In this document: piece by piece, positions 37,433-42,905 of the stretch
How positions within the stretch are numbered: position 1 is the first letter of the stretch
How the letters are laid out: each line of letters opens with the position of its first letter
Assembly: GCA_016935555.1 (NCBI GenBank)
Contig: JAFGQR010000163.1
Coordinates: 21,963 to 85,962 of the forward strand
Reading direction: 5' to 3'
Source of the DNA: Verrucomicrobiota bacterium
GTDB taxonomy: Bacteria > Verrucomicrobiota > Verrucomicrobiia > Limisphaerales > JAFGQR01
DNA length: 64,000 nucleotides
Position numbers and translations under genes: made by a program
The notes under the pieces: generated by a model
Databases searched by the model: none
Told to the model about the DNA's origin: nothing
What the model saw: the letters and a program-made list of their open reading frames with translations, nothing else

Positions 37433-38905
37433 ATGAATTACCGGCTGTTGAGCAAGTTGCTGGGGCTGCTGCTGCTGCTGCTGGGCAGCGCGATGCTGCT
37501 GTGCCTGGCCTACGCCTGGTGGGACCAGGAATGGCAGGACGGCCTCGACGCCGTCGAGGGCTTCATCGCGTCCGTCGCCGCCGTGACGGTGGCCGGGGCG
37601 ATCCTCCTGAGGCTGGGACGCGGCTCCGGGCGCGAGATCCTGCGGAAGGAGGGCATTGCGGTGGTGGGGGTGGGCTGGCTGATGTGCGCCACGTTTGGCG
37701 CGCTGCCCTACCTGCTGTGTCCGCCCGGCCTCAACCCGGTGGAGGCCTTCTTCGAGTCCATGTCCGGCTTCACCACCACCGGGTCGACCGTCATCGTCGA
37801 CCTCCGGCAGTGTCCTCCCAGCCTGCTGCTGTGGCGCGCGCTGACGCAATGGCTGGGCGGGTTGGGCATCCTGGTGCTGTTCGTGGCGCTGCTCTCGACG
37901 CTCGGCGTGGGCAGCAAAGCGTTGTTTCACCACGAGTCCTCCGCCAAGACCGGCGGTGGCGTCCAGGCCCGAATCCAGGACGTGGCGATGCGGCTTTGGG
38001 AGATTTATCTGGGGCTTTCGGTCGCCTGTTTCGCGGGGCTCATGGCGCTGGGCATGAACGTGTTCGACGCCCTGTGCCACAGCATGACCGCCCTCTCCAC
38101 CGGCGGCTTCAGCACCCGCAACGAAAGCATCGCCGCTTTCGGCAGCACGAGCATCGAGCTGTGGCTGACGCTGTTCATGCTGCTGGGCGGATGGAATTTC
38201 ATGCTCTACGCCTGGCTGCTGCGCGGACGCTGGGCCCGTTGGGTCGCCGAGGAGGAAGGCAAGGTCTATCTCGCCGTGCTGCTTGGCGTGACGGCCTTCG
38301 TCGCCGCCAACCTCGTCCTGGTCAAAGGCGGCTACTCCTGGAGCGCCGGCTTTCGACACGCCTCCTTCCAGGTCGTGTCCCTCATGACCACCACCGGATT
38401 CGGCACCGCCGACTTTGACCAGTGGCCGCCCCTGTCGCGGCTGCTCCTGTTGCTCATCATGGCCGTCGGCGGCTGCGCCGGGTCCACCGCGGGCGGCATC
38501 AAGCTCGCCCGCTGGATCCTGTTCCTTAAAATCATCCGCCACGAAATCGTCCGCGCCTTCCGCCCCAACCAGGTCTTTTCTCTGCGCCTCAACGGCAACC
38601 CGGCCGACGACGTGATGAAGGTGCAAACCGTGTTCTTCGTCGCGCTGGCGGGGGTGACCGTGTGCGCCGGCACGGTGTTGGTCAGCCTCATGGAACCCGC
38701 GCTGGGAATGGACAGCGGATTGTCGGCCGTCATGGCCACGCTGTTCAATGTCGGCCCCGGCCTGGGCGCGGTGGGCCCCGCCAGCAACTTCGCCGGCTTG
38801 CACCCGGGCACTCTCCTGCTGCTGAGCCTTTTCATGCTCCTGGGCCGCCTCGAGTTCTTCGCCGTCCTCGTCCTCTTCATGCCGTCCCTCTGGCGAAAAT
38901 ACTGA
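37433..38905 (+). CDS. trkH: Trk-type potassium transporter membrane subunit
   Basis: 490 aa polytopic protein; P-loop-like SMSGFTTTGSTVI, SMTALSTGGFSTRN, SLMTTTGFGTADFD; follows trkA. Confidence 0.93.
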   Translation: MNYRLLSKLLGLLLLLLGSAMLLCLAYAWWDQEWQDGLDAVEGFIASVAAVTVAGAILLRLGRGSGREILRKEGIAVVGVGWLMCATFGALPYLLCPPGLNPVEAFFESMSGFTTTGSTVIVDLRQCPPSLLLWRALTQWLGGLGILVLFVALLSTLGVGSKALFHHESSAKTGGGVQARIQDVAMRLWEIYLGLSVACFAGLMALGMNVFDALCHSMTALSTGGFSTRNESIAAFGSTSIELWLTLFMLLGGWNFMLYAWLLRGRWARWVAEEEGKVYLAVLLGVTAFVAANLVLVKGGYSWSAGFRHASFQVVSLMTTTGFGTADFDQWPPLSRLLLLLIMAVGGCAGSTAGGIKLARWILFLKIIRHEIVRAFRPNQVFSLRLNGNPADDVMKVQTVFFVALAGVTVCAGTVLVSLMEPALGMDSGLSAVMATLFNVGPGLGAVGPASNFAGLHPGTLLLLSLFMLLGRLEFFAVLVLFMPSLWRKY

Positions 38906-41202
38906 TGCCGTCATCCCGTCTCATGGCCGCCCTGGCGCTGACCACCAGCCTCGGGCTCGCACCGCCGCCGCGCCCGGCAGGCCCCAACGAGCCGGCCACA
39001 CCCGCGTCGATCGCGTCCCGAGCCGATGCCCTCGCCCACATGCGCCGGCTGTTCCCGCCGAGCGAACCCTGGGAACAGTGGCTGCGCCAGTCGCGCGAAC
39101 TGCCGCCCGATTTCAACCTGCTGCCCAGCACCCCGTTTCTGCCGGACCCGCTGCGCTTTGCGGACGGCGGGGAGGCCAGGAAGGAGGAGTGGCCCAGGCG
39201 CCGGCGGGAACTGCTTGTGCTGATCCAACATTACCTCACCGGAGTGGCCCCTCCGTCGCCAGCCAACGGGCGCCCTTCAACCCTCCAGTCGCGCGAGGAA
39301 CCCGGGGCGTTCATCGACGAGGTGACATGGGCGTTCGGACCCGGGCACGCGGCGCGGCTCCGCTTCGAGCTAATCCTTCCCAAGGCGCCCGGACCGTTCC
39401 CGGTGTTTCTCACCCCGAGCAATCACCGCGCCTGGGCGCTCGTGGCGGTCAGCCGCGGCTATTTGGCATGCGTCTACGCGGCGGCCGAGCCCCGGGATGA
39501 TACGGCGGCATGGACGAACGTCTGGCCGAAAGCGGACTGGACGACGCTGCGGCGGCACGCATGGGCGGCGTCCCGCGGTGTGGACTACGTGTCGAAGCTG
39601 CCCGTGGCGAACACCAACCAGATGGCGTTGGCAGGACACGGGCGGGACGGCGCCGCGGCGCTGGTCGCGGCAGCAACGGACCCGCGCATCGGCGCCGTGA
39701 TCGCGAGCAGCTCCGGCGCCGGGGGCGCCTGCCCCTGGAGACTGTTTTCCGAAGCCCGCTTCGGCGAAGGCATCGAAGCCGTCACCCGCGCCTTTCCAGG
39801 CTGGCTGCATCCGCGATTGCGCTTCTTCGCCGGACGCGAATCGAAGCTTCCGTTCGACCAGTCCGGGCTCGTCGCGTGCATCGCGCCCCGGCCCTGTCTG
39901 ATCTGTTCGGCGGTGAACGACGGGAAGGAGAGCCTTTGGGCGATCGAACACAGTCACCGCTCCGCCCGCCGCGCCTACGCGCTGCTGGGCAAGCCCGGCC
40001 AGCTCTATCTTCGCTACCGCCCCGGCGGCCATGAGACGTCGTCCGAAGACATCGAAGGCTGCCTGGACTGGCTGGACGCCGTGTTCGGCCGGGCGCCGTT
40101 TACGTTTCCGGATGTGACCACGTTTCCGACGTATGACCTTTGGGAGAAGACAAGTCGCGACAAGGTGGATCCCATGGCGTTTCGGACCAACGAGCCGGCC
40201 GCCCTCCTCGAAACCACCAACCGCACCCGCATCACCACCCCGCTCCAGTGGATGCAACACCGTCACGACATCCGCCAACGCCTCCTGTGGAGCCTGGGCG
40301 AGGCGCCGCCCTTCGCCGAAAGCAGCGCCGGCTTTTGCGACGACGAACCAGCCCCTCGGGCCCTGTTGCTGGGCCGCCACCACGTGCCGCCGGGCCTTGC
40401 CAAACGCAGCCTCCATTTCGGCAACGCGCTCGCCGGCGACCTCTACTTCCCCACCCGTGCCGACACCTCCGGCCGCCGCCTCCCGGCCGTCATCTGGCTG
40501 CACCCGGTCCCGGTCGCCACAGGCTACGTGCCCGGGTGCCGGGACGGCGAGCCGCCGCACCTGGCCCTGGCGCGGCGGGGCCTGGCCGTGCTGGCCTTCG
40601 ACCAGATCGGCAGCGGCGCGCGCGTCGAGGAGATACGGCATTTTTATTTTCGCTACCCGCGGTGGTCCCTGCTGGGGAAGATGGTGGAAGACGTGCTGGC
40701 GGGGGCCGAAGCGTTGCGCAAGCTGCCTTTCATCGATGCCGGGAAGATCGGCCTGCTGGGCTACGCCACCGGGGGAATGGTCGCACTGCACGCGGGCGCC
40801 CTCGACGACCGGATCGCCGCAGTGGTGTCGGTGGCCGGGATCACCCCCATGCGCCTGGACACCGCGGCCAAAGGCACCGGCGGCATCGCCCGGGTGTCGC
40901 GCTGGCTGCCGCTGCAACCCCGCCTCGGCGCCTTCGTCACCCATGAAACCCGCATCCCCTACGACTACCACGAGGTGCTCGCCATGATCGCCCCCCGCCC
41001 CGTGTGGCTGTTCGCGCCGCGCCTTGACGCTTGCGCGACGCCGGCCGACGTGCAGGCATGCGTCGACGAAGCCCGGAGCGTGTTTGCGCTGCTCAAGGCC
41101 AAGGCCCACCTGCGCCTGGATGTCCTGGACGATTACAACCGTTTCCCGCCGGAGACCCAACAGGTCGTGTGCGATGCGCTGGCGGCGTTGCTCCGCCGCT
41201 AG
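38905..41202 (+). CDS. Secreted protein with two consecutive alpha/beta-hydrolase-like domains (acetylxylan/glucuronoyl esterase-like)
   Basis: In-frame ATG 38905 overlaps the trkH stop (ORF-track start 38662 is inside trkH). Domain 1 ...IAPRPCLICSAVNDGKES...GGHETSSEDIEGCLDWL; domain 2 ...YATGGMVALHAGALDDRIAAVVSVAG...MIAPRPVWLF. Nucleophile elbows read GHGRDG and GYATGG. Confidence 0.75.
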   Translation: MPSSRLMAALALTTSLGLAPPPRPAGPNEPATPASIASRADALAHMRRLFPPSEPWEQWLRQSRELPPDFNLLPSTPFLPDPLRFADGGEARKEEWPRRRRELLVLIQHYLTGVAPPSPANGRPSTLQSREEPGAFIDEVTWAFGPGHAARLRFELILPKAPGPFPVFLTPSNHRAWALVAVSRGYLACVYAAAEPRDDTAAWTNVWPKADWTTLRRHAWAASRGVDYVSKLPVANTNQMALAGHGRDGAAALVAAATDPRIGAVIASSSGAGGACPWRLFSEARFGEGIEAVTRAFPGWLHPRLRFFAGRESKLPFDQSGLVACIAPRPCLICSAVNDGKESLWAIEHSHRSARRAYALLGKPGQLYLRYRPGGHETSSEDIEGCLDWLDAVFGRAPFTFPDVTTFPTYDLWEKTSRDKVDPMAFRTNEPAALLETTNRTRITTPLQWMQHRHDIRQRLLWSLGEAPPFAESSAGFCDDEPAPRALLLGRHHVPPGLAKRSLHFGNALAGDLYFPTRADTSGRRLPAVIWLHPVPVATGYVPGCRDGEPPHLALARRGLAVLAFDQIGSGARVEEIRHFYFRYPRWSLLGKMVEDVLAGAEALRKLPFIDAGKIGLLGYATGGMVALHAGALDDRIAAVVSVAGITPMRLDTAAKGTGGIARVSRWLPLQPRLGAFVTHETRIPYDYHEVLAMIAPRPVWLFAPRLDACATPADVQACVDEARSVFALLKAKAHLRLDVLDDYNRFPPETQQVVCDALAALLRR

Positions 41203-41256
41203 CGAGCCCCCATCTCCGCCGCGGCGGCGGAGCTTCCCTGGGTGAGAAACTGCGAC

Positions 41257-41476
41257 GAACATCGAACGCCGAACGTCGAACATCCAACATCGAATGGCGA
41301 AGCCAATGGGCAACCAATGGATTGTGCCGTGTCGCGTCTGGCGTTGAGCGTTGAGCGTTGAGCGTTGGGCGTTGAGCGTTGGGGGTTCGGTGTTCCTCCG
41401 CCCCCATCTCCGATCTCCGCCATTCAGCATTCGGTGTTCGGCGTTCAGCGTTCGGTGTTCAACACTCGGAATTCCA
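41257..41476. repeat. Heptamer (7-nt periodic) repeat cluster in both orientations
   Basis: 41257-41298 gaacatc gaacgcc gaacgtc gaacatc caacatc gaatggc; 41341-41396 gcgttga x3, gcgttgg, gcgttga, gcgttgg, gggttcg, gtgttcc; 41421-41476 cattcag cattcgg tgttcgg cgttcag cgttcgg tgttcaa cactcgg aattcca. Confidence 0.85.
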
Positions 41477-41546
41477 TGGCTCTGATCATCAGCCACTTAA
41501 CCCTCGAGTTTCTGGAGAGGGTCAAGACCTCCAGCCGCCTCTGAAA

Positions 41547-42905
41547 TCAGGCGCCGGGCAGGCGGTAGGGCGCGCGGTAGGCGGTGTCGAGCAGGCGGTT
41601 GGCCTGGGGATGGTTGGTGAACCGCTCGGCCCGGGCATCCCACTCAAGCAGGGCGCGGGTCTGGTGGGCGATATTGGCGAGGAGCGTGGCCGACGTGCTG
41701 CGGTGGCCGGTTTCAATGTCGCAGTGGCAGGCGGCGCGGCTCTTGACGCAGTCCAGGAAGTTCCGGGCGTGGAAGGTGGTGTCGCCTTCGCCCTGGCTGC
41801 CGAAGGTGGCGGCTTCGATCATGGGCTTGGCGCCCTTGCGGTATTGGGCGTCCGTCTTGCGAGTGAGTGGGGAGCGGGCGGGGAACTCGTTGGGGGTGAT
41901 GGCGTCGGGGAGGACTTCGGCGCGGTTGCCGAAGAGGCAGAGGGTGCCCCGGGTGCCGCGCAGTTCGACCTGGCAGCCGGGAAGGCCGGCGGGGGCGGCG
42001 GTGGCGTTGAACTGGGAGAAGGTCACGAGGGTGCCGCCGGGGTATTGCCACAACACCTCGAGGGTGTCGGGGATTTCACGGTTGTCCTGCATGCCCGCGA
42101 ACCGGCCGCCGAGAGCGGTGACGGCCAGGGGCGCGTCCTGGCCGAGAGCCCAGTGGATGAAGTCGAGGTAATGGACGCCGAAGTTGGTGACCTGGCCGCC
42201 GCTGTAGTCGTAGAACCATCGGAACCGATAGAAGGTCCGGTTCTTGTTGTAAGGCTTGGCCGGCGCCGGCCCCTGCCACGCCTCCCAATCCACGTCCGAC
42301 GGCGGCTCCGTGTCGGCAGGGTTCCCAATGCCCTTGGGCCACTCGTTCTGGACATGAAACGCGCGCGCGACGGTGACCTTGCCCAGGCCGCCGCGCCGGA
42401 CGAATTCGGCGGCCTGGCGGCAGAAGGGCAGTGAGCGCCGGTGGATGCCCACCTGGCAGACGCGCTGGTGGCGGCGCACGGCTTCGACCATGCGGCGTCC
42501 TTCGGCCACGCGCAGGGACAGGGGTTTTTCGACGTAAACATCCTTGCCGGCACGGGTGGCTTCGATCGTTTGAAGCGCATGCCATTGGTCCGGCGTGCTG
42601 ATCACCACCGCGTCCACATCCGGCAGCTCGAGCAGCTTGCGGTAGTCCTTGAACTGCCTCGGGCGCGTGCCCGCCTTCGCCGCCGCAAAATCCAGGTAGG
42701 GCTGGTAAAGGTCGCACACGGCCACCACCTGGGCGTCGGGCTGGGCCAGAAAGGCGTCGAGCACCTGGTCGCCGCGGTTGCCCAGGCCGATGAAACCAAG
42801 GCGGACGCGTTCGTTGGCGCCCGCCGCGCGGGCTGCGCCAAGCGCGGTCGTGGCGCCGGCAAGAACAACGGTGCGTGCGAAATCTCTGCGGGTCCAGGTG
42901 TTCAT
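41547..42905 (-). CDS. Gfo/Idh/MocA family oxidoreductase with Tat-type signal
   Basis: Start [29 protein letters not shown] at 42905; [50 protein letters not shown]. Confidence 0.92.

What the first reader, a model, noticed from the sequence alone, without database searches (positions are those of the whole stretch)
41257..41476. Heptamer repeat locus in both orientations
Three clusters of 7-nt units (gaacatc-like on one strand; gcgttga and cattcgg-like on the other) lie between convergent genes. The first cluster is the reverse-complement class of the third, so they could fold into an imperfect hairpin. The strict 7-nt period creates artificial ORFs of the type LNAQRSTLNAQR / FGVRRSAFGV. 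Similar heptad repeats occur in some other Verrucomicrobiota and Planctomycetota genomes (recalled, not checked), but function is not known to me.
Basis: partly seen in the sequence, partly recalled or inferred. Interest (0 to 1): 0.62.

Follow-up and report, generated by a model that had tools for sequence, protein, structure and literature searches.

The report
Gene-less mobile element with heptamer arms
The three clusters of 7-letter repeats are the arms of a small repeated DNA element sitting exactly at a gene's stop codon, and in several other bacterial phyla the same kind of inverted heptamer arms flank a small gene of unknown function (the four-helix-bundle or S23/IVP protein), which suggests where the puzzling 7-base repeats of many bacterial genomes come from.

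Summary
All three clusters are one class, unit TTSRRYR, reverse-complemented on the left. They lie inside a discrete 320-bp repeat (41200-41519) whose ends recur 31-46 times in this genome; a 24-base array pattern occurs 707 times genome-wide, control 0. The copy starts on the stop codon of the upstream gene; in 23 of 26 left ends beginning with a stop codon, that codon is the in-frame stop of a long ORF.

The order reverse array, spacer, forward array holds across phyla (58 vs 4). In several genomes a PF05635 gene (23S rRNA-intervening-sequence protein, IVP) lies between the arms. Conversely, IVP genes of this order and on plasmids of other phyla are flanked by 7-bp-periodic arrays, mostly inverted (best lag 7 in 21/30 and 17/19; Y1-transposase flanks show no excess). 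Nostoc plasmids give empty sites: IVP elements, arms included, sit at stop codons inside an operon, and a gene-less heptamer element has entered one IVP gene.

Best explanation: a gene-less derivative of an IVP element. What moves it is unknown; integron integrase and RVT_1 reverse transcriptase are not associated. The only earlier link I found is tandem heptamers in the Coxiella rRNA insert.

The parts
41200..41519 (+). Whole interspersed element: left end, minus heptamer array, spacer, two plus heptamer arrays, right end
   Evidence: Ends conserved in 46 (left) and 31 (right) places of the genome, common outer boundaries
41200..41202 (+). TAG, first codon of the element and in-frame stop codon of the upstream gene
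   Evidence: ORF of 890 codons ends at offset 0; same in 23 of 26 left ends that begin with a stop codon
41200..41257 (+). Left end (LE) of the element
   Evidence: 46 matches in own genome at E up to 0.01
41214..41232 (+). Terminator-like hairpin CTCCGCC...GGCGGAG in the left end (T-rich tail CTTTCTT in most copies, CTTCCC here)
   Evidence: Sequence and fold; terminator function inferred, not tested
41257..41301 (-). Heptamer array, left arm
41341..41395 (+). Heptamer array TTGAGCG type, right arm part 1
41423..41467 (+). Heptamer array TTCGGYG type, right arm part 2
41460..41519 (+). Right end (RE) of the element
   Evidence: 31 matches in own genome, most with the same outer boundary at 41519; absent from 58 genomes of other families
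38899..41202 (+). Upstream gene, esterase-type alpha/beta hydrolase; its stop codon is the first codon of the element
   Evidence: Pfam GCE_fung, Peptidase_S9, AXE1
41547..42905 (-). Convergent downstream gene, Gfo/Idh/MocA oxidoreductase; its stop lies 27 bases beyond the element
   Evidence: ORF list and Pfam

Best explanation
The locus is a gene-less (non-autonomous) copy of a mobile element whose arms are inverted arrays of degenerate heptamers. Complete relatives carry between the arms one small gene of the 23S-rRNA-intervening-sequence / S23 / four-helix-bundle family (IVP, PF05635). Such elements insert at stop codons or gene junctions and leave the neighbouring proteins intact. Gene-less copies arise by loss of the IVP gene and persist as dispersed inverted heptamer arrays that grow and shrink. 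In this genome the copies also carry a left end with a terminator-like hairpin and a conserved right end. Shown: the repeat family, the arm order, IVP genes and IVP remnants between arms of this heptamer class, 7-bp period at IVP genes in several phyla, and empty sites for two IVP insertions and one gene-less insertion in Nostoc. Inferred: that the window copy descends from an IVP-bearing element, that the IVP protein takes part in movement, and that the left hairpin terminates transcription of the upstream gene.
For: 707 array matches vs 0 control. Conserved ends with sharp boundaries. Stop-codon placement, 23 of 26, p 9e-9. Arm order 58 vs 4 in own genome, relatives and other phyla. Full IVP gene between TTSRRYR arms in L278, L328, L377 and in G010 of the same order (L227); 3' part in L384; remnants in L275, L332, L372. 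Own genome: IVP C-terminus running into TTGAGCG units in L049 (E 2.6e-4). Lag-7 period at IVP flanks, 21/30 in order relatives (p 1e-6) and 17/19 on plasmids, none in Y1 controls. Empty sites in Nostoc plasmids. Array counts follow IVP counts, rho 0.48. Tandem heptamers GACAGAT beside the S23p ORF of the Coxiella 23S rRNA IVS (PMC4990558).
Against: No IVP gene or remnant was found inside the left-end/right-end copies of this genome. Copies with both ends but no heptamers exist (L190, L191, L203), so the ends may be a separate mobile unit. Only about 8 of 119 array loci from other genomes still hold IVP sequence. Two relatives have arrays but no IVP match. Empty sites are for other heptamer classes in Nostoc, not for this class. 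No recombinase is known for any of them.
Confidence: 0.7

Rival explanations
1. The mobile unit is a MITE-like element defined by the left and right ends and moved by an unidentified transposase; the heptamers are microsatellites that grew inside it by slippage.
For: Ends are the best conserved part of the copies; end-only copies without heptamers exist and also start at stop codons (L190, L191, L203); long pure TTGAGCG runs point to slippage.
Against: The same heptamer class with the same arm order occurs without these ends in 26 of 58 relatives and in other phyla, so it is not a by-product of this genome's ends. No gene was seen between left and right ends in 1.74 Mb.
Confidence: 0.2
2. Plain slippage-grown microsatellites tolerated in intergenic DNA, with no mobile element behind them.
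For: Array lengths vary widely and units are homogenised within arrays; heptamers are over-represented among bacterial simple repeats (PMC4692102).
Against: Slippage does not explain conserved non-heptamer ends in dozens of places, the fixed arm order, the reverse association with IVP genes, or the empty sites.
Confidence: 0.05
3. REP/BIME-like element moved by a Y1 (RAYT) transposase.
For: Small gene plus inverted repeats plus dispersed gene-less copies is the REP/RAYT plan; the own genome has 3 Y1_Tnp matches; Y1 genes of the order do have inverted flanks.
Confidence: 0.03
4. Integron-related arrays: the unit read as GTTSRRY resembles the core site GTTRRRY.
For: Sequence resemblance; integron integrases above the cut-off in 19 of 58 relatives.
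Against: No association of integrase and arrays (9 of 19 against 17 of 39, p 1.0); many units have C where the core site needs R; other heptamer classes at IVP genes do not resemble the core site.
Confidence: 0.01

Closest known systems
23S rRNA intervening sequences (IVS) encoding S23p/IVP, e.g. Coxiella burnetii (PMC4990558)
   Same: Same protein family between inverted ends; Coxiella has three tandem heptamers (GACAGAT) just before the ORF, with copy number varying between strains; the ORF decays
   Different: Those sit in a helix of 23S rRNA and are cut out by RNase III. The elements here lie between protein genes, at stop codons, in many copies, mostly without the gene, and with heptamer arrays as both arms
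Intergenic heptamer repeats: Xanthomonas GGGAATC and Nostoc GGGGAYT (PMC4692102), Beggiatoaceae TAACTGA (PMC4679880), Chloroflexus GATAGRA (PMC6749651), Calothrix tandem heptanucleotides
   Same: Period 7, intergenic, many loci, patchy over phyla; some Xanthomonas arrays lie as convergent pairs
   Different: Other unit sequences; no IVP gene, element ends or empty sites were reported in the passages I read
REP/BIME with RAYT (REP-associated Y1 transposase)
   Same: Works alike in plan: small gene with inverted repeats, plus many dispersed gene-less copies at gene ends
   Different: No Y1 transposase tied to the arrays; arms are heptamer arrays
MITEs
   Same: Short, gene-less, dispersed, inverted arms
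   Different: No transposase-bearing parent found; arms are tandem arrays

Membership tests
IVP/S23 (IVS-type) element | PF05635 ORF between the arms | tested here: not met
   Not in the window copy or other left-end/right-end copies; met for the same heptamer class in L278, L328, L377, L227
IVP/S23 (IVS-type) element | Located in a 23S rRNA gene | tested here: not met
   Lies between two protein genes
IVP/S23 (IVS-type) element | Inverted ends able to form a stem | tested here: met
   Fold z -4.2 and -3.9; arm order 58 vs 4
IVP/S23 (IVS-type) element | Excision of the transcript by RNase III | not testable with these tools
   Needs RNA data
Bacterial heptamer simple-sequence repeats | Tandem 7-bp units, intergenic, many loci | tested here: met
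REP/RAYT | Association with a Y1 transposase | tested here: not met
   No 7-bp period at Y1 genes; heptamer-rich G018 has no Y1 match
Integron attC/core site | GTTRRRY core and an integron integrase | tested here: not met
   Units with C at the R position are common; no association with integrase
MITE | Transposase-bearing parent with the same ends | tested here: inconclusive
   None seen in 1.74 Mb of the genome; the rest of the genome was not read
MITE | Target-site duplication at this copy | not testable with these tools
   No close relative with an empty site is held

The most novel reading that the evidence does not exclude
IVP (S23/four-helix-bundle) genes with inverted heptamer arms are a widespread, unrecognised class of bacterial mobile elements that insert at stop codons without any known recombinase, and much of the heptamer repeat content of Verrucomicrobiota, Desulfobacterota and Cyanobacteriota genomes is their gene-less debris.
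Probability: 0.5. Interest if true: 0.92.

Novelty: new variant of a known kind. Interest (0 to 1): 0.8.

Why it matters
Heptamer repeats between genes have been noted in cyanobacteria, Xanthomonas, Beggiatoaceae and Chloroflexus without a settled origin, and the four-helix-bundle/S23 protein has no known function. Linking the two gives a testable story: a tiny element slips between genes at stop codons, leaves the neighbours intact, spreads, loses its gene and leaves heptamer arrays that break assemblies. If the IVP protein takes part in movement, it would be a new way of moving DNA or a partner of one.

Tried and rejected
Integron hypothesis (GTTSRRY vs GTTRRRY): no association. Reverse transcriptase: no RVT_1 match in the own genome and no correlation. 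RAYT/Y1: weak correlation, 0.25 once genome size is allowed for; a heptamer-rich genome lacks it. Period 7 as an all-frame stop signal: 13 of 36 left-entering arms hold no stop codon, so not general. Arm complementarity kept by selection in this genome: not seen; weakly seen in the genomes from the collection scan. Rfam: nothing. DNA matches of the element in phages or plasmids: none. Right end in 58 relatives: none. Gene-end preference of two-armed elements in other genomes: only slight, with many near gene starts too, so the exact stop-codon placement is shown for the left ends of this genome and for the Nostoc cases, not for all arrays. Inverted arms alone are not special to IVP: Y1 genes have them too; the 7-bp period is what sets IVP flanks apart. 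Literature searches found the Coxiella heptamers but no general link; most subscription journals are not held.

Full report
1. Observation. The window holds three arrays of one heptamer class. Written as TTSRRYR, they lie at 41257-41301 (minus), 41341-41395 (plus) and 41423-41467 (plus); 100 shuffles give none. The whole genome (5.29 Mb, 200 contigs, 93.6% complete) has 707 matches of a 24-base pattern against 0 for the reversed pattern. Long arrays often lie at contig ends.

2. The feature is larger than the heptamers. Similarity between copies extends to a left end, 41200-41257, with 46 matches in the genome, and a right end, 41460-41519, with 31 matches; the best right ends are 90-98% identical and most share one outer boundary. 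Complete copies have the order left end, minus array(s), spacer, plus array(s), right end. Right and left ends also meet head to tail in L047, L183, L188 and L194. The right end was not found in 58 genomes of other families of the order, while 26 of those 58 have the arrays, as do 101 of 289 genomes across the phylum. Different genomes favour different units.

3. Placement at stop codons. The left end begins with TAG, TGA or TAA in 26 or so readable copies, and in 23 of these that codon is the in-frame stop of an ORF of about 170 codons or more, most with coding-like third-position GC (p 9e-9 against one third). TAG is used in 19 of about 24 such cases, against 22% of stops in the genome. In the window it is the stop of an esterase-type hydrolase. 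A G+C hairpin follows 14 bases later, in most copies with a CTTTCTT tail. It could terminate transcription; this is inferred.

4. Arm order is conserved far outside this order. A scan of the genome collection fetched array loci from Desulfobacterota, Lentisphaerae, Verrucomicrobia, Chlamydiota, Nitrospinota, Acidobacteriota and others. Neighbouring arrays of opposite strand within 150 bp are reverse-then-forward in 58 cases and forward-then-reverse in 4, over own genome, two relatives and the scan.

5. A gene between the arms. In L278, L328 and L377 a full ORF lies between the arms, and in L384 its 3' part lies beside one. It belongs to PF05635 / TIGR02436, the 23S rRNA-intervening-sequence or four-helix-bundle protein, with solved relatives 2rld and 2gsc. 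The same holds for L227 of G010, a relative in the window's order. L275, L332 and L372 keep fragments of the gene between the arms. IVP genes occur about once per Mb in this order (252 matches in 58 genomes, my sum over), so by my estimate about 0.1 such coincidences would be expected among 119 array loci. In the window's own genome, contig C40 (L049) begins with an IVP C-terminus, LVETEELIRIFAASLRTAKRKSGSG-stop, running straight into TTGAGCGTTGAACG units (E 2.6e-4).

6. Reverse test. Starting from IVP genes rather than arrays, 30 loci of the order's relatives show raised identity at lag 7 (0.615, other lags 0.41-0.49; best lag 7 in 21 of 30; p 1e-6), while Y1-transposase flanks (0.43) and random positions (0.45) do not. 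The sequence classes differ between loci (GTGGYCA, GTCGAGG, GTTGCAG and so on), and in most loci left and right arms are reverse complements; inverted flanks as such also occur at Y1 genes, so the period is the distinguishing mark. On plasmids, 17 of 19 IVP genes, from Cyanobacteriota, Chloroflexota, Spirochaetota, Bacteroidota and Bacillota, have 7 as best lag (0.82 against 0.51 for other lags; 0.49 in far windows of the same loci). Many sit between operon genes: cas6/cas4, cas2/cas1 (two cases), cas10/cmr3, drmD/pglX, hsdS/hsdR. The Coxiella 23S rRNA insert has three tandem heptamers GACAGAT before its S23p ORF (PMC4990558).

7. Empty sites. A three-gene operon on Nostoc plasmids is uninterrupted in L561, L562 and L563. 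In L564, L567 and L568 an IVP element lies at the A/B junction: empty GGTTCTAGGTTATGCAA, filled GGTTCTA-AATCAGGAGTCAGAAGTC...GACTTCTGGA-TTCTAGTTATGCAA, with TTCTA on both sides. In L541 a different IVP element lies at the B/C junction: empty GTGAGGTAATGGGATTTG, filled GTGAGGTAATG-TTAGGGG...GTGAATT-ATGGGATTTG. The heptamer arms are inside both insertions, and the proteins A, B and C are unchanged at the junctions. L568 also has a gene-less insertion of about 180 bases, with inverted arms of the same class, inside its IVP gene; it is absent from L564 and L567. So a gene-less inverted-heptamer element enters as a unit. A third comparison (L548) is a replacement and not a clean site. In such tight operons selection alone could confine survivors to junctions; the exact placement of left ends at stop codons in the window's genome argues for targeting too but does not prove it.

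8. What moves it. Array counts over 58 genomes follow IVP counts (rho 0.48, p 1.5e-4; 0.39 given genome size), less so Y1 (0.25 given size), not RVT_1 (0.02), not integron integrase. These genomes are related, so the p-value is optimistic. Two genomes have arrays and no IVP match. The own genome has no RVT_1 match. Several IVP matches of this genome lie at contig ends, as repeats do, and one IVP family recurs in at least four contigs. No recombinase was identified.

9. Structure. The element folds into a long hairpin on either strand (z -4.2, -3.9). In this genome the arms of one element are no more complementary to each other than to arms of other copies, so I do not claim a selected RNA structure.

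10. Verdict. Gene-less derivative of an IVP-type element, confidence 0.70. The main uncertainties are whether the left and right ends of this genome's copies are a second mobile unit that merely holds the heptamers, and what enzyme acts. I found no description of the class as a whole in the papers I could search.

Noticed in passing
own genome: L139 1-181 (-), L155 13672-13881, L199 18335-18514, L128 2827-3006: A second IVP gene family in at least four contigs, sharing a 5' flank with six-base units (TAATCC) in place of heptamers; copies break at contig ends.
   Followed up: partly
own genome: L045 16804-17449: An IVP gene flanked by a different inverted heptamer class (GAAATYT before, TYTCARA after).
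   Followed up: partly
own genome: L175 10300-10800 (-): IVP-like fragment with inverted six-base arrays (CTCTTG before, GAGTAA/GAGCAA after).
   Followed up: no
own genome: L183 9751-9800, L194 9146-9195, L201 1113-1160: Related hairpin modules, the palindrome AGCCCCCATCTCCGCCGCGGCGGAGATGGGGGCT next to AAAACCGCTGCGCGGTTTT, mixed and matched with left and right ends like a mosaic repeat.
   Followed up: no
L180 38-110, L189 10095-10108, L197 11259-11272: A further tandem heptamer, RATCTCC, inside the same elements.
   Followed up: no
viral contigs L446 1-750 and L495 9900-10371: IVP genes, in L446 two near-identical tandem copies, each ending in AACGTTG heptamers that supply the stop codon; contigs are IMG/VR predictions.
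   Followed up: partly
L543, L550, L551, L552, L545, L559 (plasmids): IVP genes sit between CRISPR, DISARM/BREX or restriction genes in several unrelated plasmids.
   Followed up: no
own genome G000:C32:3-305: An IVP match (55 bits) at the very start of the window's contig, outside the window; could not be fetched.
   Followed up: no
relatives: Integron integrases above the curated cut-off in 19 of 58 families of this order, and a partial one in the own genome (C124).
   Followed up: no
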